Assembly: GCA_963971425.1 (NCBI GenBank)
Contig: OZ020525.1
Coordinates: 1,488,001 to 1,552,000, forward strand
DNA: 64,000 nt
Source: Bryoerythrophyllum caledonicum
Taxonomy: Eukaryota > Streptophyta > Bryopsida > Pottiales > Pottiaceae
Reading direction: 5' to 3'
Part shown: piece by piece, positions 5,421 through 52,144 of the stretch
Layout: the number at the start of each line of letters is the position of its first letter
Numbering within the stretch: the first letter of the stretch is position 1
Made by a program: the position numbers and the translations under genes
The notes under the pieces: model-generated
Databases searched by the model: none
Told to the model about the DNA's origin: nothing
Seen by the model: only the letters and a program-made list of their open reading frames with translations

Positions 5421-5748
5421 GTAAGCCTAGTCCCTCCATCTTCAAGTTTCTTTTTTGCTCCGGTGCCGGGGTCGTTCAAGGCCGTTGTCACTTGCTTCAG
5501 CTGCCTAGTGCACTTCTTAGATTGGGAGCGTTGTGATCCTGTGAGGGCGTATGGTTTCGAGCATCTGCCGTTTCCAGGGTTCTGTTTTATCGTGTATATC
5601 AGCGTAGATCTCCGGGCGCAAGGGTTAGCTTGTTTAGGGACGACTTTTGCTTTTGCTGGGGGTTTCTGTTTTCTTGTTCATCGGCGATCTCTTAGGACGT
5701 GGTTTTTTTTGGCGCCAGGCACGATTTTTTAACGTTCGTGTGCTTCAG
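5421..5748 (+). other. Predicted 5'-UTR intron of the SRP receptor gene
   Basis: CCAG|GTAAGCC at 5420/5421 and GCTTCAG| at 5748 are strong donor and acceptor sites lying just upstream of the start codon at 5758. The intron is inferred from sequence only. Confidence 0.6.
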
Positions 5749-5757
5749 GGTGCAATC

Positions 5758-7701
5758 ATGTTGGAGCAGTTTTTGATCTTCACCCGAGGCGGCCTGGTGT
5801 TATGGTCGTGCTTGGAGGTCGGGAAAGCGCTCAAGGGTTCGCCAGTTGATGCCCTCATCAGGACATGTCTCTTGGAGGAGAGAGCCGGCGACTCTTCATT
5901 TCAGTATGACGCGGCGGGAGCGGGGTACACTTTGAAGTGGAGGTTTCATAATGAGCTTGGATTGGTCTTTGTGGCGGTTTATCAGAGGATGTTACATCTT
6001 CTCTACGTGGATGAGCTTCTGGAGAAGGTGATGCGGGAGTTTTCTATGTTGTTTGTTCCGACGCGGACGGTTTACCGTGAGTTCGATGACACGTATCGGC
6101 AGCTCTTGAAAGAGGCCGAAGCAAATTCTCAGCTCAAGCGTTCGGGACAGAATCGGCCTTTAGAGAATTCACGGAAGGGCTCTGAGTCTCAGGCCCGGAA
6201 TGGACAAATGCAGAAGAAAGGTGGAAAGTCAGGCGGGAAGAGTGTAGGGGCAAAGGACGATGGGGCAGAGGACGATGGCGAAGCAAACGGTAGCAAGTCG
6301 AGTGCCATGAGGTACAGCAATGGTACAGGTAATGGGCATGTTAATGCTATCAAAGCCAACGGGCCTGCTGGTGCGAATGGTATCAGCAGCAGTGCGAGTG
6401 GGAGCAGCAGCGATGAGGATAGTGTTGCAAGCAAGATCTCTCGCGAGAATGCGTTTGATGTAAATAAGTTAGCCAAGCTTCGGAGCAGCAAGCTGAAGAA
6501 AGCCCCAACCGGCCTAGAGGGCCCGAAGGCTGCTTCCAAGGAGGATAATAAGAAAACGAAGAAGAACAGGGTTTGGGGTGACGCCCCTCCCTCGAAACTA
6601 GATTATACAGACCCTACCCCTTCCGATGAGGTCGAGGCTGGAGTTGATGTTACTGCTGTGGAGAAGGGGTTGAGTTTAATGGACCAAGAGGATGATGATG
6701 AGAATTTCCGAGTGGAGGACTTGGAGGAGGAGATTGAGAAAGGCGCCGGCGGCAAGAAAGCTGCTCCTAAGAAGGGTTGGTTGACGTCTCTCGTTCAAAG
6801 TGTCGCAGGGAAACCAGCCCTTGAGCATGCCGATCTAGAGCCGGCTCTCAAGATTTTCAAGGAGCGTTTGATGACAAAGAATGTCGCTACCGATATTGCA
6901 GAGAAGCTGTGTGAGTCAGTGGCTGCAAGTCTTGTGGGGAAGAAGCAGGGTTCTTTCACGCGGATTTCTACCACTGTCCAGGCGGCCATGGAGGAAGCAT
7001 TGGTTAGAATTTTGACTCCAAAACGTTCAGTTGATATTCTGCGTGACGTCCACCAGGCTAAGGAGGCTGGTAGACCCTACACGATTGTCTTCGTGGGCGT
7101 CAATGGAGTGGGAAAATCCACAAACCTGGCCAAGGTGGCTTACTGGCTGCAGCAGCATGACATCAAGGTGATGATGGCTGCATGTGATACATTCCGCTCG
7201 GGTGCTGTTGAGCAGCTTCGCACCCATGCTCGCAGGCTTCAGATTCCTATTTTTGAGAGGGGTTATGAAAAAGATCCTGCGGCAGTTGCCAGGGATGCCA
7301 TTTACGAAGCGAAGCGCACGAAGCAGGATGTTGTCCTCGTGGACACTGCCGGACGAATGCAGGATAATGAGCCTCTGATGAGGGCGTTATCAAAGCTCAT
7401 CAATATGAACAATCCGGACTTGGTCTTGTTCGTTGGAGAAGCCCTGGTTGGCAATGACGGTGTTCACCAGCTCACCCAATTCAACCAGAAACTGGCTGAT
7501 CTTTCCACGACTTCTGCTCAAACACAGAGTATCGATGGAATTGTACTCACCAAGTTTGACACTATTGATGACAAGGTCGGAGCAGCACTGTCGATGGTTT
7601 ATACCTCCGGTGCACCTGTTATGTTTGTGGGCTGTGGTCAGAATTACACCGACTTGAAGAAGCTCAACGTGAAGTCCGTGATGAAATCTCTTCTGACTTA
7701 G
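5758..7701 (+). CDS. SRPRA: Signal recognition particle receptor subunit alpha
   Basis: This is the SRP-GTPase that docks SRP-ribosome complexes at the ER membrane, pairing with SRP54 and anchored through SR-beta. The 647-residue product starts at MLEQFLIFTRGG, the typical start of the SRX/longin domain (about 1-120) that binds SR-beta. A charged, low-complexity linker (about 125-340) follows, then the NG GTPase domain: P-loop GVNGVGKST at 447-455, insertion-box ACDTFRSGAVEQL, DTAGR at 529-533, and TKFD at 598-601. Length matches eukaryotic SR-alpha (about 620-650). The upstream ATG-free extension of the frame lies in the predicted leader intron, so I place the start at 5758. The whole coding region is in one exon, unlike most neighbours. 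Key GTPase residues are all present, so it should be functional. Confidence 0.96.
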   Translation: MLEQFLIFTRGGLVLWSCLEVGKALKGSPVDALIRTCLLEERAGDSSFQYDAAGAGYTLKWRFHNELGLVFVAVYQRMLHLLYVDELLEKVMREFSMLFVPTRTVYREFDDTYRQLLKEAEANSQLKRSGQNRPLENSRKGSESQARNGQMQKKGGKSGGKSVGAKDDGAEDDGEANGSKSSAMRYSNGTGNGHVNAIKANGPAGANGISSSASGSSSDEDSVASKISRENAFDVNKLAKLRSSKLKKAPTGLEGPKAASKEDNKKTKKNRVWGDAPPSKLDYTDPTPSDEVEAGVDVTAVEKGLSLMDQEDDDENFRVEDLEEEIEKGAGGKKAAPKKGWLTSLVQSVAGKPALEHADLEPALKIFKERLMTKNVATDIAEKLCESVAASLVGKKQGSFTRISTTVQAAMEEALVRILTPKRSVDILRDVHQAKEAGRPYTIVFVGVNGVGKSTNLAKVAYWLQQHDIKVMMAACDTFRSGAVEQLRTHARRLQIPIFERGYEKDPAAVARDAIYEAKRTKQDVVLVDTAGRMQDNEPLMRALSKLINMNNPDLVLFVGEALVGNDGVHQLTQFNQKLADLSTTSAQTQSIDGIVLTKFDTIDDKVGAALSMVYTSGAPVMFVGCGQNYTDLKKLNVKSVMKSLLT

Positions 7702-9689: not shown

Positions 9690-12105
9690 ATGCAGGCTGG
9701 CGGCCGCCTCGGGAGCCCGCGCGCAATTCGATGGCGGAAGGGCGAGCTGATCGGGGCAGGTACATTCTGGTTGCCTTGTGATCCTTTGTCATCCTCTGGG
9801 CCGCCTCTCTCGGCACTGTGATTGCTCAGAGTGCCGCGGGTTCGTGCTGCCTCCCTCTTGGTCAATTTCGTGTGTCGGGATAGCAGAGAGCATGTTAGGG
9901 TTGCGTCTCATTCGGGTGCAGCTGCACTGGAATTCCATCGAGGCGGTCGACGTTGCACGCAGTCCCTGCTGGGAGAGAGTATTTTTGTTGTGAGGAGGTC
10001 GTGCTGCATTGTCGAAGTGAGTCTGGGTCGTTCCAGAGGCGAAGCCATCGCTCTCTCTTTCTCTGTGAGTGTGCATTCCTCCCTCCGCAATCAATGGCGT
10101 GACATGGGTGTTCGTGACGGGTGTGGTGTTGTGTGCAGGCGCGTACGGGCGGGTGTACATGGGCCTGAACCTGGACTCGGGGGAGCTGATCGCGGTGAAG
10201 CAGGTGTGCATCGCGCAGAACAACGTGACGAAGGACCGCGCGCAGGCGCACATCCGTGAGTTGGAGGAGGAGGTGAAGCTGCTGCAGAACCTGTCGCACC
10301 CGAACATCGTGCGATACCTGGGCACGGCGCGCGAGGAGGAGGCGCTGAACATCTTTCTGGAGTTCGTGCCGGGCGGGTCGATTTCGTCGCTGCTGGGCAA
10401 GTTCGGGTCGTTCACGGAGACGGTGATCCGGATGTACACCCGGCAGCTGCTGCTGGGGCTGGGGTACCTGCACAGCAACCACATCATGCACCGCGACATT
10501 AAGGGCGCCAACATCCTGGTGGACAACAAGGGGTGCATCAAGCTGGCGGACTTCGGGGCGTCGAAGAAGGTGGTGGAGCTGGCGACGATCTCGGAGGCGA
10601 AGTCGATGAAGGGGACGCCGTACTGGATGGCTCCGGAGGTGATCCGGCAGACGGGCCACAACTGGCAGGCGGACATGTGGAGCGTGGGGTGCACAGTGAT
10701 CGAGATGGCGACGGGCAAGCCGCCGTGGAGCCAGCAGTTCCAGGAGGTGGCGGCGCTGTTCCACATTGGGACGACGAAGTCGCACCCTCCGATCCCCGAG
10801 CACCTGTCGGCAGACGGGAAGGACTTTTTGCTGAAGCTGCTGCAGCGCGAGCCGCGGCTGCGGCCGAGCGCGGCGGAGATGCTGAAGCACCCGTTCGTGC
10901 AGAACTACGACCAGGCGTTCGAGGGGCAGGAGAGCGGCGAGGGGCGGCAGATGCTGGAGGAGCATCTGCAGCCGGCGAGGACGCCGGCGGCGTCGCACAG
11001 CGAGGGTCCCGGACGCACTTCGATGTCGCGGCGGAGCTCGCTGCGGGGGTCGCTGATGGGGTCGTTGCGGCCGGGCGGCATGTCGTTCTCGTTCAAGGAC
11101 CCGCGGGCGTCGATCAAGCGGTACCTGAGCATGAGCAGGGGTGGGCCCACTTACGGCGAGGATCCGAGCTGCTTGGTGCGGCTGGACTCGGTGGGAAACT
11201 CGATGCGGGACTCGGTGAGGCTGGACTCGGTGCGGGACTCGGTGAACCTTCGGGAGTCGGTGAACCTTCGGGAGTCAGTGAACCTTCGGGACTCGGTGAA
11301 CCTGGGGGACTCGGTGTGCCTGGATTCCGTGAGGATGGACGCGGTGGGGCGGGGGTACACCTGGAGCGAGAGCTTCAACCCGGTGTCGGAGCCGTCATTT
11401 TTGGAGGGCAGCAGGTGGCGGTCGAATCTGACTCGGAACGGCGGATTCTCATTCCGGCGTTCAACGGCACAAGGTGTGGCAGGGGGCGGCGGGATGGTTC
11501 GGGAGAGTCGGGGGTGGTCGCTGCGGCCAGAGGACGAGGAGGAGGTGACGGAGAGCAAGATCCGGGCCTTTCTGGACGAGAAGGCGCTGGAGCTGAAGAA
11601 GCTGCAGACGCCCCTGTACGAGGAGTTTGTGAGGGCGTCAGTGTCCGGGGACGCTGGACTGAGTGCAGCGGGAGGTGCGGAGGCGCCGGTGAGCCCCGGC
11701 ATTGGCGTGCATGCCAGTCGGAGCAGGAGCAGGTCTCCCAGCAAGGCGTTGGCGGGGACGAGCGGGAGGTCCGCGGGCGTGTGCAGCAGCGAGGAGAGCT
11801 TGAGCAGCGTGAGCTCGGACAGCCCTGGCGGCGGAAACGGCGCCCCCTCGACGAGCGGGCACACGAGCGTCCTGCTGGAGATTTCGTCCCCGCGGCTGAA
11901 CTCGATGAAAGCGCCGGCTGGCGACGTGCAGGCGGCGGAGCGGCAAAGGTTGTGGAAGGAGGAGTTGCAGCGGGAACTGCAGCTGAAGCGAGAAGAGAAG
12001 CGGAAGCACGTGCAGAGGGTGCCCCCGCTGTCGCCGTCTCCCACCTCAAGAGCGCACCAGCGGGCAGGCAGCAGTAGGCTGGCGGCGGTATCATCCCAAG
12101 TGTAG
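9690..12105 (+). CDS. ANP: ANP/NPK1-type MAP kinase kinase kinase
   Basis: This Ser/Thr kinase would act at the top of a MAPK cascade; plant ANP/NPK1 proteins drive phragmoplast expansion in cytokinesis with a NACK kinesin, and also stress signalling. Gene model: join(9690..9759, 10139..12105), 678 residues. The small first exon encodes IRWRKGELIGAG, completing the Gly-rich loop across a phase-1 intron (G|GTACATT ... GTGCAG). An in-frame TGA at 9636 and the ATG at 9690 fix the start. The kinase domain covers about 14-280: Lys44 in AVKQV, HRDIKGAN with Asp143, DFG with Asp161, then GTPYWMAPEV. The C-terminal half is Ser/Arg-rich with a hexapeptide repeat (about 375-425) and a basic coiled segment near the end. 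The N-terminus is much shorter than that of Arabidopsis ANPs, which have some 60 residues before the kinase. An intact catalytic core suggests an active kinase. Confidence 0.9.
11191..11340 (+). repeat. Coding minisatellite (18-bp unit) inside the MAPKKK
   Basis: Units encoding (D/E)SVNLR and (D/E)SVRLD recur every 6 codons, several with the near-identical DNA unit GTGAACCTTCGGGA. The reading frame is kept throughout. It probably varies in copy number between individuals. Confidence 0.75.
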
Positions 12106-15702: not shown

Positions 15703-15711
15703 TATACATTA
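15703..15711 (+). repeat. Left 9-bp target-site duplication of the MULE
   Basis: TATACATTA lies immediately outside the left terminal inverted repeat and is repeated exactly at 28666-28674. Nine bp is the characteristic target duplication of Mutator-like elements. Confidence 0.85.
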
Positions 15712-15762
15712 CAACGACGCTATCTTGTGAGCGGTGAGCGGTGAGCGGTGAGCGGTGAGCAG
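15712..15762 (+). repeat. MULE left terminal inverted repeat
   Basis: It starts CAACGACGCTATCTTGTGAG and continues as five GTGAGCG-like units. It pairs with 28615-28665 in inverse orientation, with differences at positions 3-5, 7 and a few C/T changes in the 7-mers. Confidence 0.85.
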
Positions 15763-16490
15763 AAAATAGTCTGAAAATGGGAAAAAAAAGTTGTTTTTTT
15801 ATAGCAAAACTTTTTTTTTTGGAAAATAATGATAAGTCTCTCAAACTTTGCGTGGAAAATTCGAAGAATTTTCTAAACTTAGAATGTACCCTATAGCCGT
15901 GGAATCTCTAACCATGGACATTTTTACCAAATTCCTTTCGTCGCTCATGTCCAGGACTATCAACTCGCGGTTATATTTCCATTTATTAAAACCTTAAAAT
16001 TACAGAGTCCACAATCAAATAAAAAATTTGAATGAAATTTTATAAAACTTACAATGAATGTGAAGTCCAACAGTAGGGGATGTGGAGTCATATAATTTCA
16101 TCGTGATAGCTATATTACACAGTGTTTGGAACAAATAATATTTTAATGTTCTAACATTAGATTCTAAACTATCGTCCAATGGTTAAAGATACCGCATCTC
16201 TCCAATTGGAGTTAGGCATGGTTCAAATTTGATGATATTATATGCTGCCAATACATGACATAACTTCTGCATGTTGCTAACATAGCTCCTCTCAAGTCGG
16301 TTAAAATAATGTATCAGAAAGAATGATACATTGTAACATAAATTAGTATATTGAAGAGAAGTACGAGTGAGAAATTCACTCATGCATTGACTATTAGCCA
16401 TCCTCGTGACAAGCAAGACCAATTTCACATGTTCAAATACGAGCTACTGCAAAATACAAATACTATTCAGAAGATACTTCACTACGATTT

Positions 16491-19400
16491 TCATGCTTGC
16501 TCGGCAATATTTGCAAGCTCTAGAATGCGCATGACCTCGTTAAAGCTGTAGCTTGGGGCATGCATGAATAAGTCCTCCTTGTAGTCCATCTTACATAAAT
16601 AGCGTAAGATGTAATACACATGCTTGCAATACTTCCATTGCCCTTTCTTCCCCAACGCCTCCACTGACATCTTCAGGAAATCTGGACATGTACACGCCGG
16701 ATAGTCTGTGAAGGTTATGCAATACGACTTCTCCTTCTCCGTTAGAAGAGTGATGACGCATCCAAATCCCGGATACGGCATGGCGGTGACATTCGTAACG
16801 TAGCAATTCTTCATCAACGCTGCGCTTGACCACTTGTTTCGGTGCTCCACGGAAGGCACATCTGAACTTCGGCGAATCTGGTAGCCGTTGCGGAAAGTAT
16901 GGTACGAGTCCGGATTCTCTGGAAGAGGGAAGTTCGATCGCGGTAGAGGCATGCTCATAGTTACCTGAAACTGTCTACGAGGCGACAAAGTACCACGTTG
17001 CTCTAACTGAAAACCTGCTTCTTCTAACGATAAAACTTCTTGCATCGTTAGATTCGTGCCAAGCTTTACTGGCCATGTCATTGGGACTGATGGCCAGTCT
17101 ACTACAAACGGTTTCTTCGAACCCATCACGCATCGGCTAATATCATCAGCACAAAACCAGAACTCGACAGCAGTATTTCGGGGCGACCTGAATTCCTTCT
17201 TCTTGCCAATATATGTCGGGGCAGGTGTTCCCTGACTCCCACGCCCAACTCTAGCGTCACACCTTTCACCGGTGTGTGCCTGCAATGCTTGGCACTTTCG
17301 GTGGGAGGTCTTCGGAAGTCGACCAATGTGCCACTTTGACGGATCACACTCCGATTCCAATACTGCAGTTGTGTGACGGACCCCGGAACCTTGTTCATTT
17401 AGGGCCTCTTCGATTCGCGCCCGCGTCACCCTTCTGCCATCACGTGGAATCGAATAGTTCACCGTATCGGATCGGTGGGAGTCGTGGCTGGACCCGGGTG
17501 GCATGTCAAGTTTGCGTTTTGTAGACCCAAAATGCTCCGCTCCTTCGAGCCCGCCCGTCTTTGTCAAGAGATCCTCCGCCCCCGGGAAACTCCGCACAGC
17601 TTCTGCAATGAGTCTTGGATCACCAGAACGTTGGGCAGATCTTAATCGAAGCGTACCTTTGTCTGGACCTTTCCCGGAGGTGCCTCCATTGATCCATGCC
17701 CGATACGATGTGATTTGCATGAAAGCCCGAATTAGGTCATCCACGGTAGCCGCATATAAACATGTCATGGTATTTCCGGACTGTTGAAGCCAGCGGTTGT
17801 GGACTGTTTCCGCAAGATTACATGATGGCATGTCAGCTCGCTCGTCGAGTGTGAGGTCCTGATATCATACAGCAATGGTCAGTACATCATTCACATATAA
17901 CTTTTCAACAATTTGAATATTTATAAACAACATTGCGAGAACTTACTAGTTGCATTGCTCCACCCCATTGTCTATATCGGAAATGCCAAAAAGCCATCCA
18001 ATCTTCCAGCGCACGACGCCCGCTCTCGGTAGTGGCTCCAGATGAAATCCACCATCCACGAATGACGTTGTATTGTGCTTCAGCCTCTTCTTGTGATCTC
18101 GCGTTCTTCCAAATCCTACAAAGTGCAATGTGTTGATCTTGGAATGCTGGTAGAATGCTCTTCGTGGTGGCTCGTTGAAGGCACTTGGTCCAATGGAATA
18201 AACAAGTCCGTTCTTTGTTTTCGATCGGGACGTCCTTGTCGCCATTGCCATACACTCGCCGAACAGCGTGCCAATTCGCTCCGGCACTATCAGCCATGAA
18301 CCCTTTGAAATTTGTGTTCTCCACTCCGTGATTCAACATCGTATCATTCAGGTTCTCCCAAAACAACTGTTGTGCTTGAGCATCCTCCGATTGCATATCA
18401 CACATAGCTATCGTCATAACTTTACAATACTTACTGTCGTATACATGGCATGCCATGGTAGTCCAGTCTTTAACCCGCTTTACGTGATCAAACATCAACC
18501 AACAATCTTGGAGATCTCCACCAGGTTGCATCCGCCGAACAAGATCAACACCGCTACCAGGACGATCCACAGACATTTTAAATACAAACACCTTACCTTT
18601 AGATTGGCCTGGGAACTTGTTCTCGTGGATGAAGACAAACTTGGATGACTCCTTTAGCTCCATGATGTTGTCCATGACACCCTTCCCACCACTGTAGAAG
18701 CGCTTGCATGTCGACACCAAATTCCTTATGTTAGGGGATGATAGAGTCTGGAACTGATCCAAGACAGCATCCATAGATGCTCCTTCAAGGTTTGATGATC
18801 CCGATCCGGGACGGATCAAGTAATCGGAAAGGTAATTCTTACTGGCAGCCATAATGATTGCAGAATTAGTGGCGTTGGGTGTGCGCTCGACTTCCTTCGC
18901 AACGCACTCATGCATCACGTCCATTGCGGCTTGGTCAACTCCATTTGAGATGGGATGCTGGTGAATACCTAGATGAATGGCAAGTCGGGTGCGCTCCGAA
19001 TCGGTACACGTCACATAATAAATACGTGCATCACATAGAGCTAGACAAATAGGCGGGGTTTGACAAACCTTACAAGCCAAGGTTGATTTACGGTGCGGAG
19101 CGCCATTGAGAGGCCAGGGGGAAATGGCGAGACCACTCCATTCCGTTTGATTAGTGCGACCTTCATTCCTGCACTTATAATCACAATGAAGATTAGGACA
19201 TTGAAGATGGCCAATACATGATGACTTTCGGTATGTCAAGCCAAAATCGTTCATGATATTTGTAGTCATTGTCTTGCACCATGTGTGACCATCGTGTTGC
19301 TTGCTCATACCATCCAGTCCTCCTCCGAACTGAGTTGGTATGCCTTCTGGAAGTGGAGGCAACTCAAACATCATGTCCCCGTTGTAAGACGGAGGCAAAT

Positions 19401-20043
19401 ACTTCACACGTGAAACCTCTATGGTGTCGAAATCCACGTGTGTCAACTCAGAACGGGATCCTTTTCTAGAACAGGTCCTACGAACATATGGAATGATACT
19501 GCGGATACTTTTAGATTTTGGATGGACAGGTGGTTTTCTAAAGGAAAGAGACGGAGACATGTGCGATCTACTTGGGGTATGGATAGACGCATCGGGAACA
19601 GTAGAGTTTTGCGACTTAAAAGTGTGCGATGATTCCCCCAAATTCACATCAGAGAGGTCCTCGTCTGTGTCACTTAGAAGTTGCACGCTTGGATTAGACC
19701 GTGTGCCCAAACCAGGCACAAGTATCGTATCACCGGAATCGGAAGGAGGGATCATCACTGCACAGGACGCATTAGCAGACATTTGAGTATCCCTAACACC
19801 ATATACTTTAAAAGAACCACGACACAGATTCCACAGAAAGCCTAAATCGTCTCGATCTTTCACTTGGTATATAGAATGTTCTAGTCGTCCTGAGCTATCA
19901 AACACCTCTTGTTCAAGATGAACGGTTCCAAGTCTAAACCCAAATCGACTACTGAGGACTGCCTCCGGGACATTAACAGTGCCATTTTCACCAACGGACA
20001 TGACAAGCGGAACACCACCATTCTGAGATGTGAGTGACGCCAT
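16491..20043 (-). CDS. MULE transposase (zinc cluster, DDE/MULE domain, SWIM finger)
   Basis: This gene would catalyse excision and insertion of the surrounding element. Model: complement(join(16491..17858, 17947..20043)), 1154 residues, with one 88-bp phase-0 intron (CTA|GTAAGT ... ATATCAG|GAC). Residues 276-363 form a Cys/His cluster (CIGHLQC...H-L-G-I-H) of the WRKY-GCM1/FLYWCH type used by MULE transposases for TIR binding. The catalytic core shows Asp519 in LMFDHVKRV, Asp585 in FMADSAGANW, and the C..H motif at 614-617 (CLFHWTK). The SWIM finger near the C-terminus reads CTCPDF...CKHVYYIL. Residues 1-250 are a poorly conserved, Ser-rich region that I do not recognise. No internal stop is present, so the enzyme may be functional. 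It is transcribed divergently from the other two genes in the element. Confidence 0.85.
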
Positions 20044-20922
20044 AGTTAAGAGCTCTCCACAACATAGGATATGAAATGCATGCGGATTATGATTGCGGTT
20101 GTATATTGAACAAAATCAACTGCTTGATTAAACATCTGAGTGAAGACGTCCAAGTACGGAAACGCATCGTGCTCATAAATGGCTGAGTTTATTTAATGCC
20201 TTCTGTCAAATGCCCATGCACGCTCCTTGACGGCGCCTCTATAAAAATGGAAACATTTTAAAATTTATGATAAAATTAAAAACGTTGATCCAACTAAGGC
20301 GGAGTATACCATACAGTTGGTATTCGACGTGTACAGTGGTTATCCACTAAACTATCAGTAAATATCCAAAGATAAGAGGCTTGTGACGGCGGTGGGAGAT
20401 TATAGTAATGGAACAACCTAGAACTAATTTCAAGTTTAGTTAAGGCTGACAACATTAGTTTAAATAGATGTTTGGAAAGGGCCGTGCCAAATGTGGGTGC
20501 TTAGAGTAGGTCAATAGTCCAGGGTTTGCAACGATGAGGTGCTTTCAAAACTCAGGTGCGAAATAGAATATTGATATATGTGCCACCTCAAGCTGTAGGA
20601 TCACCCAATCTAATTATGCTATGTGTGTTGTCGTTATTCAAGAATCCAAACCTATATACAAAAAATACAGTGTTTAGAATGGTGGGAGGAAAGAATATTA
20701 TGGGCATATCATAAATAGATAGCAGTTCCGATTCAAATTAAAGGCTGACAACAGCCAATAATATAGCCTAAACAATCGCCACCATGTACTAAAGATAACA
20801 GGAAAGGGCATTCTTAGTCAACATTGCTTTGTAGTAGAAGCGTCAATATGTTTGTGGTCTTCTCTGTGAGAGAGTGATGTTTAGGCATAGAGAAGGAGTC
20901 GGTTTAGCTTTGAATATTGAGG

Positions 20923-21556
20923 ATGACTAAGAATGCTAGACACAGTAGAAGATCTACCAAGTTTTCAAATCCTAAGCAAGTGCGCGCACAGAAGAAACGT
21001 CGAGAGCAGAGGGCACTACTAGCTTCCCAAAACACGGAAGTAGATGAACCAGAATGGGCAGAGCGATTTAGGGATTTGACTAGTATCCACGAAGGAGCTA
21101 ACCCAATCCAGTCAAGGGTTCATGTATGTCTTGAATGGTCTGCCCAAATGATTTTGAATATCACGATTTAGTTCAATTCAATGGTGTTATTGCATGACTT
21201 TGCTATCTCTTTATGTTGTGTAGGTGACTACACCATTTGAGCATTCTCATGGGGATAGTGAGGAGGAAGAGTCTTTACAAGCCAATATGGTGAGTGAATG
21301 TCAGACATCCAGTGCCTCCGATTGCTCGTTGCAAAGGGGTAAGGTTGCAGTTGAAAAGGTTAAGGAATTCCAGTGTGAAAGTATGGAGACCACAGAAGTT
21401 TCCGGGAGCCAGGGACATCCACCAAACTCCTCAAGGATCATGAATGGTTCACCCTCTCGGACATCAGATACTCAAATAGAGAGCCATTATGAAAGCGCGG
21501 ACGAGCGTCCAGAAGCACTGATGAATCCAGGATGGTCCCCATCGACTCAGGTTTGA
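20923..21556 (+). CDS. Small MULE-internal gene of unknown function
   Basis: Model: join(20923..21123, 21224..21556), 177 residues. The ATG at 20923 (MTKNARHSRRSTKF) opens a strongly basic region, then after a 100-bp phase-0 intron (CAT|GTATGTC ... TTGTGTAG|GTG) comes an acidic, Ser-rich tail (HGDSEEEESLQ). I recognise no family. The basic/acidic make-up suggests a nuclear protein, but this is inference. The final codons (ACTCAG|GTTTGA) could instead be a splice donor in phase 0, joining to the ATG at 23871; in that case this would be the N-terminus of the downstream gene rather than a separate one. The required 2.3-kb intron would be far longer than others here. Confidence 0.45.
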
Positions 21557-22640
21557 TTCATGGCATCCATTCGCAAGTTGTTTGAGGTTATGTATCGGCC
21601 TATAAATTACAATGCACGACACTTAATTACCAATCCATAGTTCGTCAGGATTTATCTAGAGAGTAAAATCTGTGGACATGAATATAGATGTAGTGTATGT
21701 CTGAAACATCTAACTTTTGCATTGAATCAAAGTTCTAATCATTCAGCTAATACTTATTGAACTTGAAACCATCTTAACAAACGCTACATATAATCGCATT
21801 CTTACATATATTAGATTTAATTACATTGTTTAAGACTACTTCCGATATATGCATTTTATGCATTTTATTGATGCATTCATCTATGACGTGTCAATCGGGT
21901 TCACCACTGGTTTTGGTAGGAAAATTCCTAAATGTCTCGACGTCTCCCCGGGGGGATTGTAGGGGCGGAGAAAAAATTACTAAATATAGTAAATTTTAGT
22001 GAAATTTCTGAATGGAAATTACTGCATTTTTTGTCGAATAGGACGGATGGGCATGTGGATTTCTATGTGTATCCGACAATTTGGGAATGTCATGATGACT
22101 TTAGAATTGGAGGAAATATTTACTTGACGCTTTCGGCACATGTTAAAGCTAAAAAATTGCAAAAGCATGACTTGTGCTTTCATATCTGGAGAAACTCCAA
22201 TTCGGTATATGTGTGTGAGCTTCGTGTGTTTCGCGGCTGTTTCATTTTGTTGCACATTTTTGACTTTGTGGTTTCCGGTGGTTCTTGTTCAGGGCGCAGT
22301 GCGTGCGGGTAGTCGGAGAGTTACGGAGGGAGCTGCGTTGGACGAGGAAGGAGCTGCACACGGCCGAAGCTTGCAATCCGTTCAGGTTCGAAACTCTGAT
22401 CTCCATCCTCTGTTTGCGCGTCGGTTTAGATTGTTGTTTAAACAGGAGCTTCCAGTCGTGGGTAACGTTTACATGGTTGAGAGCGCACAAGGATGTGCGG
22501 CAATCACTTACATCTCGCTGAAAACATTATGCTGCACTAGGGTTAGACAATGTGGATATATCGCATCATTAGGGTAAGTTATTTTGTACACAACGGCGCA
22601 TTAGAATTAGTCGATACGCACCCACTTAATACTCGTGTGC
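21557..22640. other. MULE internal non-coding stretch
   Basis: There is no clear exon. A GC-richer island near 22294-22500, preceded by TTGTTCAG, could hold an untranslated leader exon of the downstream gene, but no open frame there shows recognisable features. Confidence 0.4.
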
Positions 22641-22649
22641 ATGCTGCTT

Positions 22650-23860
22650 TTAAATTTCAGAATTTCTGTGAGTGAAAATATGACCCTCGGATCCGAGGGT
22701 AGGTTCAGTCCTCCAAATTTCTGTTTTCCTCTTTGCCCAAGTCCTGTTTTCATGTTAGTTTTTTTTCTTCTCGTGTGCATACTTCAAACTGAATTTCAGA
22801 ATTTCTGTGAGCGAAAATTAGACCCTCGGATCCGAGGGTAGGATCAGTCCTCCGAATTTATGATTTCCTCCTTGCCCAAGTCCTGTTTTCATGTTAGTTT
22901 TTTTTCTTCTCGTGTGCATACTTCAAACTGAATTTCAGAATTTTTGTGACTGTGAATGCGACCCTCGGATCCGAGGGTAGGTTCAATGATCTGATTTTTT
23001 TCCTTTTCCTTGTTAATTTCTGTTTCATCTTCGGTTTCTTTTTTTCATCTCTTGTTGCTTGGTCATGCTCAAATTGTTTGTGTCTTGATTTAAACTGGTG
23101 TAAGAGTGAGGAGCCTAAGCTTGCCATGCTCGTGTGCATATTGCTTGTGAATTTTAGAATTTTTGTGACTGTGAATGCGACCCTCGGATCCGAGGGTAGC
23201 TTCAGTGATCTGATTTTTCTCTTCTTTTCCTTGCTAATTTGTGCTTCATTTTTGGTTTCTTTTTTTCATCTCTTGTTGCTTGGTCATGCTCAATATGTTT
23301 GTGTCTTGATTTAAACTGGTGTAAGAGAGAGGAACCTAAGCTTGCCATGCTCGTGTGCATATTGCTTGTGAATTTTAGAATTTTTGTGACTGTGAATGCG
23401 ACCCTCGGATCCGAGGGTAGCTTCAGTGATCTGATTTTTCTTTTCTTTTCCTTCCTAATTTGTGCTTCATTTTTGGTTTCTTATTTTCATCTCTTGTTGC
23501 TTGGTCATGCTCAATGTGTTTGTGTCTTGATTCAAGCCGGAGTTAGAGTGAGGAACCTAAGCTTGCCATGCTCATGTGCATACTGCTTTTGAATTTCATA
23601 ATTTGTAGGAGTGTAAATGGGACCGTGACATCCGAGGGTAGGTTTAGTCATATGTTTTTTTTTCTTTCTTTGCTAATTTTTGTTTCATTCTTGGTTTTTA
23701 ATTTCATCTCATGTTGCAAGGTCATGCTTTATATGTTTGTGCCTTGATTCGAGTTGGTCTTAGAGTGAGGAACCTAAGCTCATGATGCTTGTGTGCTTGT
23801 TGCTTGAAAATTTCAGAATATTTTAGAGTTAAAATGTGACCCTGTAAATTTGTGCGTTAC
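22650..23860 (+). repeat. Tandem array with 16-bp palindromes upstream of the ParB-like gene
   Basis: Five exact copies of the perfect palindrome CCCTCGGATCCGAGGG lie at 22684-22699, 22823-22838, 22962-22977, 23181-23196 and 23402-23417; degenerate sites follow at 23623 and about 23840. Spacing is 139, 139, 219, 221, 221 and about 217 bp. Each unit also contains TTTCAGAATTT before the palindrome. The last degenerate unit abuts the start codon at 23871, so the array forms the promoter or leader. Confidence 0.85.
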
Positions 23861-23870
23861 CTTGTTTTAG

Positions 23871-26405
23871 ATGGCAGATGTTGAGCACGGCTCTATGTCC
23901 ATGGGTGATGGCATGGACATTGAAATTCAAGTGGTGGAACATCCGGTGATTGATTTGGAGGCCGAGTCAAGAATGGAATCGACCGAGCAAGCGTTGCGAA
24001 AGTCCATCAGGGGGACAGCTTCCGAGGTTCTTCGGACCTCGATTTATCCTTCAAGTGAGGAGCTCCTCATTCCCCTTTGCCGCATGATCCCCATGACAGA
24101 GGTGCGACTTCCTTTGAGGACCGACGTGGAGAAGTTGAAGGCGGAGTTTGTGAAGGGATATCGACCTGGCTCTGCCTGCTTCTACGTGGCGGTCAAGAAT
24201 TTCTCATTAGTGGAACAGGTGGTGCTTCCCTCGGAGCGTGCGAAGTGGTCTGCACTATGGTTGGAGGAGGATAAGAAATTCGAGGCGATGTTGCAGAGTC
24301 GGCCAGAGTTGCAGGCGTTTTCCGACAAGTATTTCTTTGTCTGGGATGGAAACCACCGCCATATTGCATGGATGGAGTTGATCTCCCAGATGCACTCTAC
24401 CGACTTCATCTATCATTCGCCAGTGAGGGCAGTTGTTTTGGAGCCATCGTTGGCAAACCGTCATATTCTACTGAATGCTATGACAGATCTGAACAAGTAA
24501 GTAGTATCTACTAAACCACTATATCATGTTTTAATCTCAATTGCGCATTGTCATTGATGTCATGTTCATATTGAATATTTTGGTGGGATTATGCTAATTA
24601 GTGGTTATATATTTTCTAGGCAAAAGGAGGCAGATCATGTAACCCAACACATATCACACGAGTTGAAGAGGATCCAACATTTTGGATTGTTGGACTTTGA
24701 CCAACTCAAGGGCTTGATTAGCGATGACGATTACGAGGCAAGCGTTCACGAGTGGGGGAGGAGGGCAATGAAGAAGTGGTATCACATGACCTATGATGCA
24801 TTCTTGAAACTCATGTTTGAGGTACATATTCGATACAAGCCTATAATTCGATTGCCTTTCAATCATATTTCAGAATATGTTTTTCTCTTATCCATTAATA
24901 TGTTTTTCTCTTATCTATTAATTGTTGTCATTGGTTTTTTCAGCGTGAGATTATTGCCACCCAGGAGGAGTGTATGAGAAATTACAAGGATGGCCTCGTA
25001 ACTGGCGTTGGAGTTGATCGTGTTGGTAGTCCAGCTGAGTTGGTAAAACTTTGCACTGAGGCCGTGCAGAAGAAGAAAACGGCGTGTCAGACTACCTTCA
25101 CCAGGATGTTGGCGATCGCAAATCCAACAAACGGCGAAGAGTTTTTCACAGAGGTGTGTTAATTCCAAGTCTGATTCTGTATTTGATTGTATTTTCCTTC
25201 TTCATTTACTTTCATTTATTGTCTATTAGTATTTGACAAATTTATTGTCTATAAGTGCTTCAGGTTATGCGTCATTTTGATATTTACCAAACTAAGCCAG
25301 AGATGACACTTGAGAAGCTCCAACTCTTTTGCACCGCTAAAGTGGCTGGGAGGTTCAAGGGGCGCTGGTGTAAATGGTGGAATATGAGCAAGCACAGTAG
25401 GGCGGAGTACAACTTTCCAAAATCGCCGGCTTCAGACACGAGCCTTCGGGGATGGATTGATACAGCTGCATTTTGGGCTGGAGTGAGTTCTTCTAATGCC
25501 TATTTTGTATTGAATTTCAATCATTTAGTTCAATATATCTTGCACACTTATATTTTTATTGTATGTGGTAGTTGGAGGAGGAAACTGGAACGAAATTTTC
25601 TGAGATCCTCGAAGAAGACAAGGTTGTTCTGAAGAAAGAGGGGCTTCCCAATCCCATTGAAGATATTGGTTCTTGGATGGAGGCTTGGAGCATTATGTTG
25701 TGGACTAAGGCTTTCAAGGACCATGTTGGGAGGAAGGGCGTGTTCTCTAAGTCAGAGGAGTTTCTGAAGCAGGAGGGTTGTGAGAAGACCATGAAGCGGG
25801 CGGTGCTTCGATACTTCTGGAGGGAACTCGTTGCAAAAGGAGCGTTGCAGCCGGGTCAATTGCCAATCCGCTTCAAGGTATGGACGGACCCTACTTCTAC
25901 AGATTGCATTTTCACCGAGCAGCAGAGGCGACGCTTCTCTCGTCACCACTTGGTACAGTGTCCTTGGTTCTTGGAGTTGACGGATGCCGATCCTACCCCG
26001 GGAGAGGAAATTCAGCTTCGTAGGGACTGCGATTCTATAGCTGCCACTTCAGGAGATGGCGACATGCTTCCTTTGTCCGTCACTATAGTGACTCCCACGG
26101 TCGACGCAACACTCTCAGAGCAAGAGAAGGCAAAGGTTGCGGAGAGGGCGGCCAGGGCGGCGGTCAAGGCGGCAGAAAAGGAGGCGATGAGGGTGGAGAG
26201 AGAGACCGCGAAGGCACTGAAGAAAGAGACCAAAGAGAGAAACAAGGAGTTGGCGGCGTTGGTGGCGAGGGATGGGCCTGAGAAGCTAATTGCTGAGCTT
26301 GGGGGGGTTGTAGCGTTTACTCGCCCTGCTGCGATGGCGACAACGACCGGCATTTCCCCTTCAGCTAGCAGTCGGCCTTCCACTTTTGTCGCGAAGCCTT
26401 CGTAG
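23871..26405 (+). CDS. ParB/Srx-like domain protein, N-terminal part up to an in-frame TAG
   Basis: Exons: join(23871..24496, 24620..24821, 24944..25153, 25264..25482, 25572..26405), 696 residues, all junctions GT-AG and in phase. Residues 73-165 resemble a ParB/sulfiredoxin-like fold: VRLPLRTDVEKLKAEFVKG, then a Y-x-V strand and KYFFVWDGNHRHIAW, matching the conserved G-x-H-R box (Gly160, His162, Arg163). ParB-like domains bind nucleotides and act in DNA segregation or as nucleases; no activity is shown here. The middle (about 210-600) is unrecognised. Residues near 620-680 form an Ala/Lys/Glu-rich helix. The start ATG follows TTGTTTTAG, possibly an intron end. The TAG at 26403-26405 is followed in the same frame by the methyltransferase-like region, so this is likely the front of a longer original gene. 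Confidence 0.7.
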
Positions 26406-27902
26406 ACTATCTACTCCATTCCGGTGGTGGAGGATGTCGAGTCTGTAGTTGGAGTGGAGGTATTCTGTCAGAGTGCTCTTAGCATTATGACCCTCTTTGA
26501 TAGTATCGCTGAAGAGGATGACCTCCCTCCAATTTGGTGTGAGATTCGCCAATTCATGAAGACGCATTCTGGATCGCGCATGCGGCGCCATCATGGGAGT
26601 GATTGCTCTGATGGTTTGGTGGACATGGTTCTATTCGACGTCCCAGAGAATTTGCCAGTCCCTGGAATTGAGGGCGGCTTTGACGTGCCGATTTGGAACA
26701 AACTTCCAACCCAACTGTCTAGCAGTGGTAGGAACGAATCTCCATGGATTCACAGGTGTTTTGAGATGGCTGAGGCATTGCTTCGCGATGGGGCGCCACT
26801 CATCGTGTTCTACCCAGACTCAAAGTTCATATCGAATGAACTTCATGCTTGGGCAGAGTGGGCAGACTTTCGTGAGGAGACAAAGTGGTTTGCCATTAAC
26901 GGTTTGTCTCTCTCGCGCGAAGGATACCCCGGGCGCACTCACAAATGCTTCATGGTGAAGTGCTATATAAGGAAGCTTGATCCAGCAATCCCTTTTTCTT
27001 TTAATGACAGGATGGAATTGTTGTTGGAGGGGATCCAATTGTCTTCAGATGGTCATTTGACCAATCTGATCACACAAGAGACGCTGACGATGAGAGGTTC
27101 CAGTAGCCAGCCATGGCGAGGAGCGCGGGAGAAGTCCTCCAATCTCATGGAGGCTCTTATTGACCTTTGCACTGAGGAGAATGACATCATCCTCGACCTG
27201 ACAGCATCAACCGGTTTGTTTTCTTACTACTTTCAATTCAAAGAAATTTGTCTTTTCTTTCTATGCAATTATCAATTTCAAACTTTGTGTCGTACAGGAG
27301 CATCTATCAAGGCTTGCATGGCCCTCAAGCGCCACATCCTGGCGTTAGAGGAGGACTCAGATTTGGTAGAAGAGGTCCTCCGGCCTTTGATTCCTTGCAC
27401 TTCAGAGGTGGAGTCCGAAGTAGCGCCGCCAGTGCAAGAAAACTCTCGCAAGCGTCCATTGGAGCTTGATGACGACGAGCCGGAGGTGAAGACCGCTCGG
27501 AAGAGAACTTGTAAGTAAGTTCAGTGCCTTTGATAAAAGATTATGTTTACTAGTATACAATGTTTAATTATATTTTGAGTTAATAATGAAATGACACATT
27601 TTTTATGCAGTCGGACGACATCGTTGATGGCTGTTCCATCAAACACTCGGTCGGGGGTGCTATTACGCTTATCGATGGAGGTGAAGAGTCCGCCGCGCTC
27701 ATTTCACATGAATCCTTGGGATAGAGGTATTGCAGATGCGATGGCTGCACTTCGATCTCCTTTACGTGTCTCAGAAGTAGCCCGTTGTAGGTCTGCCGCA
27801 GAGCAGTTCATAGATGGAGAGGCGGCCGCTAGTGGATCGGATAGTAGTTTGCCTCGTATCCAGGAGGATAGCTCGGATGACTGTTCCGTAGAGGAATCTT
27901 GA
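26406..27902 (+). CDS. Degenerate N4/N6 DNA-methyltransferase-like region, continuous in frame with the ParB-like gene
   Basis: Exons: rest of the exon to 27213, then 27298..27514 and 27611..27902, phases 1 and 2 preserved. The first internal ATG is at 26487. The order of motifs fits a beta-class DNA methyltransferase: a strand plus DVPENLP where DPPY is expected (26637 onward), a helix and ALLRDGAPLIVFYPD like the LKPGG-LVVF block, then NLMEALIDLC, EENDIILDLTASTG and ASIKACMALKRH, matching the K-P-x-L and D-P-F-x-G-S-G AdoMet motifs. DPPY and the Gly-rich loop are both altered, so catalysis is doubtful. The C-terminus has a basic cluster KTARKRTC and a Ser/Asp-rich tail. If the TAG is real and not read through, this part is either untranslated or made from the internal ATG. 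Confidence 0.6.
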
Positions 27903-28614
27903 TCTCTCTACTTTGGTAGTTGTTTTCTTTTTCATCATGGGTTTGGTTTCTTGACAGTTTCATTACAATTGTCAATCTACTGTGTCTTATTTGGGGTTTC
28001 CACAACCTTCCACAATCCAAAACTCCAACGTAATTACCAAGTCGTTACTCTTGTTTTGTTTATTATTCGATCCATACAATGTCCACAACATCTGTCTACA
28101 TGTATTTAACTACATGCATTTTCTTCATATTTTATTTTTCCAATTCAAAGTAGTTTGGATTCAATCGGTATCACCTAGGTATCACATGGATATCACCTTT
28201 GAATTATAAGGGTATAAGCTTCGCATCAGATGGGTATCATCTATCTTAAACCCTATTAACTTTTCAAAAAATTCTAGACAGTCCATCGTAGAATAATTAT
28301 GAACTAAACGGACTAACCGCTCTCATATTTCCATAGGTGTATATTTTATCTCTCTATCTATGTATTTAGTTTTGTAAAAACATGTTCATGTACCCCAAAC
28401 TAAACGCACGGCCATAGGCATTTTCCCTCATTTTTTAGAAGAATTGTTGCAATTTAAACTTCAACAAGTCAGATTTCCATCTCTCCAAAACTCTAATTAT
28501 TGTATGTTTTACATGTATTTTTTTCATGTCCAAAAAATGTATATATAACCTACGGTCTTAGGTGTCCCTTTCAAATTTTGAATTTTTTTGTTGCAAATGA
28601 AACACTAAAAATGA
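27903..28614. other. MULE right internal arm, non-coding
   Basis: The region probably holds the 3' UTR of the methyltransferase-like gene. About 28160-28440 carries a repeat with GTATCACCTAGGTATCACAT that recurs, diverged, at about 49319-49470 outside the element. Confidence 0.55.
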
Positions 28615-28665
28615 GTGCTCGCCGCTCGCTGCTCGCCGCTCACCGCTCACAAGATAGCATTCCTG
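28615..28665 (-). repeat. MULE right terminal inverted repeat
   Basis: Read outward-in on the minus strand it starts CAGGAATGCTATCTTGTGAG and continues with GTGAGCGG-like 7-mers, pairing with 15712-15762. Confidence 0.85.
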
Positions 28666-28674
28666 TATACATTA
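28666..28674 (+). repeat. Right 9-bp target-site duplication of the MULE
   Basis: Exact copy of TATACATTA at 15703-15711, immediately outside the right terminus. Confidence 0.85.
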
Positions 28675-50524: not shown

Positions 50525-52144
50525 CAGTGAGGAGCAAAACTGAGTCAACTTGTCATAAATGAAACTTTGAACTTGAATTGCACATAACACAAAGCATGAT
50601 TTTTTTAATCTTTATTGTCAGAAGATATTGCTTCAAGTGTGGTATGTGGCAATCAATCCACAAAACCAAATGTCAAAGTTTAGATGAAAAATTGATGATG
50701 CAACTCAAACATGTGGCATGACTCAGTTTTGCATGCCTCTTCCACATTAAACACAATGAACTTTATGATCATTAAAATCAATGCAAAGTAGGAGGTTCAA
50801 GATTTAGATAGTTATACTCATTGCATAGTCCTTCAGTGGAAGCTCTTTACCTCTTTTTGTTGATCTTGTTTTATCATCATGGTACATTTAAAGGAGCTTT
50901 CTGCTACTGCTAGAAGAGACCTCAACAACTCTATTGTTGTCAAGTTGGAAGCTGGTAGTTCTACGAGAGATGTAGCAAATGAGTTGCAGGTGTCTCAGAG
51001 TTATGTTGCACGGATTAGAAAGAAGAGATTGCCTGATCTTGAAGCTAGTTGTGGAGGTAGACCACAGGTACTCACAGATGCACAGAAGAGAGTATCGTCA
51101 AAGCTGCCACATTAGGAGGCATTGATGCTGCAACACAGATTGCTCAACATGTGCGTGGAGAATGCCATGTTACTGTAAGTGTTGATTCAGTGAAAAGGGT
51201 GTTACGTGTTGCAGGGCTCAGATCAAAAGTGAAGCAGAAGAAGCCAAAATTGAACCAGAAACACATCAAGGAGCGACTTGAATTTGCTAGGCGCCATGAA
51301 CATTGGACCATTTGTGATTGGGAGCGCATGATCTTCTCTGATGAGACAAAGGTAAACCGTTTTTTCTCAGATGGTCGCAGTTGGTGTTGGATTCGTGATG
51401 GACAATCTTCTAATTCAAGACAATTTCAACAAACAGTAAAGTTTGGTGGTGGTTCGGTGATGGTGTGGGGTTGCATGAGGTTCCAGGGTCCTGGTATTTG
51501 TTGTAGAGTTGAAGGAATAATGGATCAGCATCAATACAAGGAAATCTTGCAGAAAGATTTATTGTACAGTATTATAGCTTATGATCTTGATCCTTCCCAG
51601 CTAATTTTTCAGCATGATAATGATCCCAAACATACAACAAAAAGTGTCCGCCAATGGTTGAAATCACATGGGCTTAATGTTCTTCAATGGCCTGCACAAT
51701 CCTCCGATTTAAATCCTATTGAGCACCTTTGGGCAAGGCTAAAACACCGTCTCAATCGATATGAAAGTGCTCCAATGGGAATTTTAGAATTGTGGGAGCG
51801 TATTGAAGAATGTTGGGCTTCCATTACACCAGAGGAGTGTAGAAGGTTATATGAGAGCATGCCAAAGCGAATCCAAGCTGTTTTAGCTAGCAAAGGCAAG
51901 TGGACAAATTACTAAATTGTTTTGTGATAGAGGATGCAAAAGTGAGTCACGGAACATAGTTTCCGTAAAAAGTAATTTTTTTGTACATATTAATGTGAAA
52001 GATACTTTTTTTCTCATGAAAATGTAGCCTACTTAAAGTATTATCTTACACAATTTATAGCTTGTGATGACCTATTACCAAATTCTTTACATTGTTGATT
52101 GAATCAAAAATTTCAAAAGTTTGACTCAGTTTTGCTTGATACTG
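50525..52144 (+). mobile_element. Tc1-type DNA transposon, 1,620 bp
   Basis: The element begins CAGTGAGGAGCAAAACTGAG and ends with the inverse of CAGTATCAAGCAAAACTGAG, flanked on both sides by TA (50523-50524 and 52145-52146). CAGT termini and a TA duplication are typical of the Tc1/mariner superfamily. It encloses a Tc1-family transposase frame. Confidence 0.9.
50879..51915 (+). pseudogene. Tc1 (DD34E) transposase, one frameshift
   Basis: The first part (50879-51115) encodes an N-terminal helix-turn-helix (ELSATARRDLNN...SSTRDVANELQVSQ) and the GGRPQVLT linker typical of Tc1 proteins. The second part (frame from about 51094 to 51915) holds the second DNA-binding helix region and the catalytic core: Asp in FSDETKVN, Asp in QHDNDPKHT, and Glu in DLNPIEHLW, with 34 residues between the last two. 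The reading frame shifts by one missing base near 51092; otherwise the two frames join smoothly and there are no other stops. This makes the copy non-functional unless the shift is an assembly error. DD34E with CAGT ends is the Tc1 branch, not the DD39D mariner type common in flowering plants. Confidence 0.88.

What the first reader, a model, noticed from the sequence alone, without database searches (positions are those of the whole stretch)
23871..27902. ParB/Srx-like domain joined to a degenerate DNA-methyltransferase fold in a plant transposon
One continuous frame across seven spliced exons shows a G-N-H-R ParB-type box, an Ala/Lys-rich helix and, in beta-class order, D-V-P-E then D-L-T-A-S-T-G motifs. 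ParB plus N4/N6 methylase pairings are known from phages and bacterial mobile elements, so a prokaryotic or phage origin followed by intron gain and capture by a MULE is possible. Function may be anti-silencing, by analogy to VANDAL proteins, but this is inference.
Basis: partly seen in the sequence, partly recalled or inferred. Interest (0 to 1): 0.9.

Follow-up and report, generated by a model that had tools for sequence, protein, structure and literature searches.

The report
Jumping gene with ParB-methylase and palindromes
A mobile element in a large eukaryotic genome carries a gene joining a ParB-like domain to a DNA-methylase fold that lacks its usual catalytic motif, and related copies carry arrays of a palindrome, differing between families around a shared centre, just in front of that gene, which suggests a jumping gene with its own protein-plus-DNA-address system.

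Summary
The two domains are real. The N-terminal part folds as a ParB/sulfiredoxin domain. The C-terminal part, modelled on a homologue, folds as a beta-class amino-methyltransferase. The gene has seven exons (1135 aa). The window copy has one in-frame stop; five of ten other copies are open. It lies in a 12,954-bp element with inverted ends and a 9-bp target duplication, opposite to a transposase that no Pfam model recognises. Catalytic motif IV is D-x-P-E/K in 28 of 30 rows and (D/N/S)PP(Y/F/W) in none. ParB-plus-methylase proteins are already reported in algal transposons (PMC12477816), so the architecture is not new.

A diverged family has GGCTTTCGGATCCGAAAGCC arrays in the same place (319, control 0). 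A homologue from another assembly has a third version. All share the centre TCGGATCCGA. Of 37 exons tested, 11 have the first type, 7 the second, none both, split by protein family; 19 have neither. Best reading: a site-specific regulator of its own element, perhaps anti-silencing. Binding is untested.

The parts
15712..28665 (.). whole element, 12,954 bp; 9-bp target-site duplication TATACATTA at 15703-15711 and 28666-28674
   Evidence: copies at up to 99.9% identity end at or within a few bases of the same points; ends and TSDs (of 11 copies with the window, 9 were scored: 10 bp in 6, 9 bp in the window, none found in 2)
15710..15761 (+). left terminal inverted repeat (as printed by the repeat search; element proper starts at 15712)
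   Evidence: 85% complementary to 28616-28667
28616..28667 (-). right terminal inverted repeat (element proper ends at 28665)
17905..20043 (-). transposase, main open frame (712 aa); 125 homologous proteins, none of the 120 listed shows a Pfam domain
   Evidence: D519, D549, D585, C614, H617 conserved at 95% or more in 60 aligned rows; no Pfam match
16491..17831 (-). probable second coding part of the transposase (446 aa), with a C-terminal Cys/His pattern that looks SWIM-like (recalled, no tool match)
   Evidence: open frame, sequence; the join is inferred
20923..21556 (+). possible small accessory gene, two exons (about 175 aa, basic N-terminus); tentative
   Evidence: open frames 20914-21168 and 21224-21553; no homology test
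22653..23824 (+). tandem repeat array (139-bp and 221-bp units) upstream of the ParB-methylase gene
22683..22700 (.). perfect 18-bp palindrome ACCCTCGGATCCGAGGGT, site 1
   Evidence: 5 sites with up to 3 mismatches allowed, all exact; 0.01 expected
22822..22839 (.). palindrome site 2
22961..22978 (.). palindrome site 3
23180..23197 (.). palindrome site 4
23401..23418 (.). palindrome site 5 (a sixth, with 4 mismatches, at 23622)
23871..24496 (+). exon 1: N-terminal tail and ParB/Srx-like domain (residues about 60-209; box W-D-G-N-H-R)
24620..24821 (+). exon 2, middle region
24944..25153 (+). exon 3, middle region
25264..25482 (+). exon 4, middle region
25572..27213 (+). exon 5: helical middle region, Ala/Lys-rich helix, methyltransferase fold with motif IV replaced by DVPE; in-frame TAG at 26403-26405 in this copy (a stop at that residue also in L025_L026 and L034)
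27298..27514 (+). exon 6: rest of the SAM-binding half (GASIKACMALKRHILALEED) and tail
27611..27902 (+). exon 7: C-terminal tail, open in the five intact copies and matched in L048

Best explanation
The gene encodes a transposon-borne, site-specific DNA-binding regulator. A ParB-like N-terminal domain and a middle region are joined to a methyltransferase fold that keeps a SAM-binding-like half but has lost the canonical catalytic motif. Shown: both folds (by predicted structure), constraint on the protein, recurrent placement of palindrome arrays just upstream of this gene, and palindrome flanks that differ with the protein family around a fixed centre TCGGATCCGA. Inferred: the protein, probably as a dimer, recognises the palindromes in front of its own gene, as ParB recognises parS or VANC its repeat motifs, and by loading there (perhaps spreading as an NTP-driven clamp) it controls its element, most likely keeping it expressed against host silencing.
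Against: No binding, expression or methylation data. 19 of 37 exons have neither palindrome type within 6 kb upstream, and of the 50 listed 12-bp-core sites on C1 only 16 lie upstream of a listed ParB exon (only 150 of 1842 candidate exons were scored). Two distant-class exons (61% and 68%) have the 12-bp core upstream without the 18-mer, so types are more than two. Copies of a family inherit protein and array together, so the family-wise match is not a set of independent events. The conservation figure is inflated because units were picked by their likeness to the palindrome. The middle region, where a ParB would have its DNA-binding HTH, has no recognised fold (no PDB sequence match; not modelled from this window). 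The ParB domain is below detection by Pfam. A host factor that binds the array would give the same placement. Very long perfect palindromes (134 bp in L052) could instead matter as hairpins.
Confidence: 0.5

Rival explanations
1. An active amino-methyltransferase with an unusual active site: the protein binds the palindrome and methylates it (the centre contains GATC and CpG), marking its own element. This is the role suggested for the Ectocarpus protein in PMC12477816.
For: SAM-binding motif I and the acidic residue after it are kept in the window copy (DLTASTG...ALEED) and motif I is close to this in most rows that reach it; the Asp and second Pro of motif IV are kept in 28 of 30 rows; purifying selection on the domain.
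Against: Motif IV is DVPE in 21, DIPE in 3, DVPK in 3 and DMPE in 1 of 32 rows (DVHE and NVLE in one each, 2 gaps); none of 30 has (D/N/S)PP(Y/F/W). Loss of the stacking aromatic is expected to abolish or change the chemistry (general knowledge).
Confidence: 0.2
2. The array is a promoter or insulator element read by a host factor or by the transposase, and the ParB-methylase protein acts elsewhere, for example as an NTP-regulated nickase in transposition.
For: A ParB domain fused to a methylase was reported to nick DNA in a bacterial case (PMC5512222, passages). No direct evidence links this protein to the array, and many core sites are not beside a listed ParB exon.
Against: In the window the 10-bp centre occurs only in the array (5 of 5), none near the inverted ends or the transposase. 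Palindrome type differs with the ParB family; a host factor would not by itself explain two site types in one genome.
Confidence: 0.2
3. A captured passenger gene without function for the element (Pack-MULE-like cargo).
For: Many copies carry stops.
Against: Kept with a like exon layout in another assembly, dN/dS far below 1 in diverged comparisons, and the same class reported in brown, green and red algal transposons (PMC12477816, passages).
Confidence: 0.04

Closest known systems
ParB plus N4/N6-methyltransferase accessory protein of Sola1-1_Ec32 (Ectocarpus) and the reported green and red algal relatives (PMC12477816, passages seen; its sources Iyer 2011 and Petroll 2025 not seen)
   Same: One protein of about 1.1 thousand residues (1104 against 1135) with the same two domain types, in a DNA transposon, on the strand opposite to the transposase.
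   Different: Filed there under Sola1; the superfamily here is unproven and was not compared with Sola. Here motif IV is degenerate and palindrome arrays precede the gene. Whether the Ectocarpus protein keeps motif IV or has such arrays was not testable here (sequence not held).
Phage and bacterial ParB-N6_N4 methylase fusions (PMC12704722, abstract, sections 6 and 7 and passages; PMC5512222, passages)
   Same: Same two folds in one chain, on mobile elements.
   Different: No sequence-level relative found in phage or viral collections; here eukaryotic, with introns, and without the catalytic motif.
VANDAL/VANC anti-silencing system (PMC5735166, PMC10398659, passages seen)
   Same: Element-encoded protein; short motifs in changing tandem repeats in the element's own non-coding DNA; motif differs between families; here the number of palindrome units varies from 4 to 8 per copy (up to 4 mismatches).
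   Different: The VANC motifs quoted there are not palindromes; relationship of the proteins not tested; no anti-silencing shown here.
Bacterial ParB-parS
   Same: ParB-type fold and palindromic sites in clusters beside the gene.
   Different: No ParA-like gene was noticed in the element (not searched as such); no HTH recognised; site unlike parS (recalled).
Cytosine methyltransferases in charophyte and dinoflagellate retrotransposons (PMC5890265, start of abstract in a search listing only)
   Same: A transposon carrying a DNA-methyltransferase.
   Different: C5-cytosine enzymes in retrotransposons, not a beta-class amino-methyltransferase fold in a DNA transposon.

Membership tests
ParB/sulfiredoxin superfamily | ParB/Srx fold | tested here: met
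ParB/sulfiredoxin superfamily | Pfam ParBc profile match | tested here: not met
   no ParBc match in window piece or 25 homologues; only PHROG 1033 'ParB-like partition protein' in 4 of 26 members, best E 0.044
ParB/sulfiredoxin superfamily | phosphate-binding box with conserved Arg (G-N-H-R here) | tested here: met
   D159, G160, N161, H162, R163 listed as nearly invariant (90% or more) in 26 rows; equivalence to ParB/SerK boxes is recalled
Canonical chromosome-partition ParB | HTH and C-terminal dimerisation domains, ParA partner | tested here: inconclusive
Beta-class amino-methyltransferase (N6_N4_Mtase) | fold with motif IV half before SAM-binding half | tested here: met
Beta-class amino-methyltransferase (N6_N4_Mtase) | catalytic (D/N/S)PP(Y/F/W) | tested here: not met
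   0 of 30 rows with letters there (32 rows, 2 gaps); D-x-P-E/K in 28
Beta-class amino-methyltransferase (N6_N4_Mtase) | Pfam PF01555 above curated cut-off | tested here: inconclusive
   window piece E 0.0055, 17.1 bits against cut-off 26.7; 13 of 32 members at E up to 0.5, best 1.6e-4
Mutator-like elements (MULE) | 9-11 bp TSD and terminal inverted repeats (definition recalled) | tested here: met
   of 9 copies scored 10-bp TSD in 6, 9 in the window, 0 in 2; two copies not scored; inverted repeats
Mutator-like elements (MULE) | MULE transposase domain (PF10551) | tested here: not met
   no match at E 10; not among the 138 PF10551 matches listed in this genome; profile comparison with those E 0.11, though its one short alignment falls on the D585/C614/H617 region
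Transposon-encoded ParB-methylase accessory proteins (algae) | both domains in one protein opposite to a DNA-transposon transposase | tested here: met
   description in PMC12477816
Transposon-encoded ParB-methylase accessory proteins (algae) | sequence relationship to the published proteins | not tested
   their sequences were not held
VANC-type anti-silencing factors | binds its repeat motif and lowers DNA methylation of its element | not testable with these tools
   only the repeat-motif anatomy is shown

The most novel reading that the evidence does not exclude
A eukaryotic ParB-parS-like system carried by transposons: a former phage-type ParB-methylase has become a catalytically silent, palindrome-addressed clamp that loads on TCGGATCCGA-centred arrays in front of its own gene and spreads over the element to keep silencing machinery off. 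Protein families and palindrome flanks co-diverge, so several mutually blind systems live side by side in one genome.
Probability: 0.22. Interest if true: 0.92.

Novelty: new variant of a known kind. Interest (0 to 1): 0.74.

Why it matters
ParB-methylase proteins in algal transposons have been proposed to bind and mark their own DNA, but in the passages I saw no address was named. Here a likely address can be read off the genome, comes in at least two versions within one genome and a third in another assembly, and has a fixed centre. That turns a vague proposal into a direct test: does each protein family bind its own palindrome and not its neighbour's? If it also opens chromatin, it would be a second origin of a VANC-like anti-silencing strategy and a eukaryotic use of a ParB-like clamp.

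Tried and rejected
Sequence-only searches were not enough for either domain: Pfam on single pieces and members gave N6_N4_Mtase only below its cut-off and no ParB; profile search of PDB sequences gave rows that I judge chance or low-complexity; NCBIfam nothing relevant for the 32 rows of A3. PHROGs gave weak methyltransferase families (phrog_3008 in 4 of 32 members, best E 0.0042; phrog_67 in 3, best 0.051).

MULE transposase by profile: unproven. Phage or viral relatives: none at E 1e-3 from pattern scans; tblastn against phages gave only hits at E 2 or more. Prokaryotic genomes: two hits, both on short contigs of one 'cyanobacterium' bin, with spliced exon layout, so I read them as eukaryotic contamination, not as a bacterial source. 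Exact 16-bp palindrome in viral contigs: two stretches (L050, L051) without a relative of the protein, taken as chance. The L048-type palindrome was not found in viral contigs.

Young-copy dN/dS (0.34-1.22, undefined where dS is 0) is uninformative because changes are few, so only diverged comparisons are used; those diverged copies carry stops, which inflates dN. (palindrome columns 0.97, flanks 0.74 and 0.72, 49 distinct units of 70) picked its units by likeness to the palindrome, so it favours it; the palindrome window ranked 3rd of 121, the best being shifted by 2 bases. Rows dropped: C3 beyond 13.5 Mb was left out so that both site lists are complete, so 37 of the 39 exons; those 39 are the C1, C2 and C3 (to 22.14 Mb) places among the 150 listed, which scored 150 of 1842 candidates; only the first 50 sites of each palindrome are listed. 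L027_L028 was left out; L031 and L032 were left out of the dN/dS tables; L023_L024 and L027_L028 were not scored for TSD.

Papers: the palindrome core string occurs in 4 papers (not opened, titles unrelated). That the palindrome system is unreported rests only; Iyer 2011 and Petroll 2025 were not available. PMC12695648 and PMC6446971 were seen as passages and mention no ParB.
Full report
WHAT IS THERE. The window is C14:1488001-1552000 of a 437-Mb genome. Near-identical copies elsewhere start and stop at or within a few bases of the same points, the ends are inverted repeats, and target duplications of 10 bp flank 6 of 9 copies scored, 9 bp in the window, none found in two. The transposase is on the minus strand (17905-20043, probably continued at 16491-17831); the ParB-methylase gene is on the plus strand, pointing away from it.

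GENE MODEL. Seven exons joined by GT-AG introns give 1135 residues. The window copy has a stop at residue 697; five of the 10 close copies fetched are open throughout. In three copies 73-79% identical in the exons, the introns differ by 42-49% (L029, L030, L034). Two contigs filed under a cyanobacterial bin carry homologues with the same kind of exon layout (L048 and, partly, L049), so the layout is old and those contigs are most likely eukaryotic.

THE ARRAY. Between 22653 and 23824, just upstream of the gene, are tandem units of 139 and 221 bp. Each of five carries the perfect palindrome ACCCTCGGATCCGAGGGT (0.01 expected). Over 49 distinct units from 11 copies the palindrome columns average 0.97 conservation, the flanks 0.74 and 0.72, but the units were picked by likeness to the palindrome, which favours it. 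The cleaner evidence is a diverged relative: its spacer gives only short matches to the window's, yet the palindrome recurs in four units with 2, 2, 0 and 1 mismatches, the exact one extended to 20 bp (L047). The exact 18-mer has 419 sites in the genome, its reversed control none.

PLACEMENT AND SPECIFICITY. The tool lists the first 50 sites. Set against the ParB exons, all 12 clusters of two or more sites lie 0.4-3.4 kb upstream of such an exon, none downstream; the nine remaining sites are single and not beside one. No exon at 60-73% identity had this 18-mer. I therefore read 601 bp upstream of one such copy and found a 134-bp perfect palindrome centred on GGCTTTCGGATCCGAAAGCC (L052). That 20-mer has 319 sites, control none, in arrays of about 520-bp period. 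Of 37 exons examined, 11 of 17 in the close class have type A and none type B; 7 of 20 in the distant class have type B and none type A; 19 have neither. Of the 10 type-B clusters with two or more sites, 7 are upstream of a listed exon and 3 are not. The 12-bp core CTCGGATCCGAG has 1281 sites against 8 in the control, but only 16 of its 50 listed sites are upstream of a listed exon; 5 of those 16 stand before two distant-class exons (61% and 68%) without the 18-mer. One search scored only 150 of 1842 candidates, so arrays without a listed gene cannot be judged. The homologue in L048 has, within 551 bp of its start codon, three sites centred the same way with GGGTC/GACCC-type flanks (one of them imperfect) plus a degenerate fourth. 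All types share TCGGATCCGA.

READING. A ParB-like protein, palindromes in clusters beside its gene, and flanks that differ with the protein family are what one expects if the protein reads the palindrome. Copies within a family share descent, so this is two families in one genome plus one from another assembly, not dozens of independent cases. Binding, NTP use and any effect on silencing are untested. VANC proteins give the precedent for motif arrays in a transposon's own non-coding DNA and for family-specific targets (PMC5735166, PMC10398659; passages). ParB domains fused to N6_N4 methylases are enriched in phages (PMC12704722, sections 6-7).

NOVELTY. ParB plus N4/N6-methylase accessory proteins were described in an Ectocarpus Sola1 transposon, with similar proteins reported from green and red algae and the suggestion that they bind and modify their own element (PMC12477816, passages). 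The architecture is therefore known. Not found in the papers searched: the palindrome arrays, their variation with the protein family, and the loss of motif IV.

Noticed in passing
17905-20043 (-): A transposase family with 125 homologous proteins at E up to 0.001 (120 listed), none of those listed with a Pfam domain; strongly conserved D519/D549/D585 and C614/H617. Possibly an unclassified Mutator-like branch.
   Followed up: partly
20923-21556 (+): A possible two-exon small gene between transposase and array, encoding a protein with a basic start; may be a further accessory gene of the element.
   Followed up: no
L052:18-151: A 134-bp perfect palindrome upstream of a diverged ParB-family copy, centred on the same TCGGATCCGA; such length suggests gene conversion or a hairpin role.
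   Followed up: partly
L048, L049 (CADCWO010000058.1, CADCWO010000134.1): Contigs of a 'Synechococcales cyanobacterium' bin that carry spliced transposon genes: likely eukaryotic contamination of that assembly.
   Followed up: partly
51151-51915 (+): Tc1/mariner-type transposase piece (DDE_3 and HTH_Tnp_Tc3_2).
   Followed up: no
5647-7701 (+), 10069-12105 (+), 59339-59818 (-): Ordinary genes around the element: signal recognition particle receptor alpha, a protein kinase, a RecG/Mfd-like helicase piece (gene names in part recalled).
   Followed up: no
genome C1:4101475-4102830, C1:7202671-7205608, C1:43123213-43127913: Further clusters of the 12-bp core CTCGGATCCGAG not beside any listed ParB exon: more palindrome types or unlisted families.
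   Followed up: no
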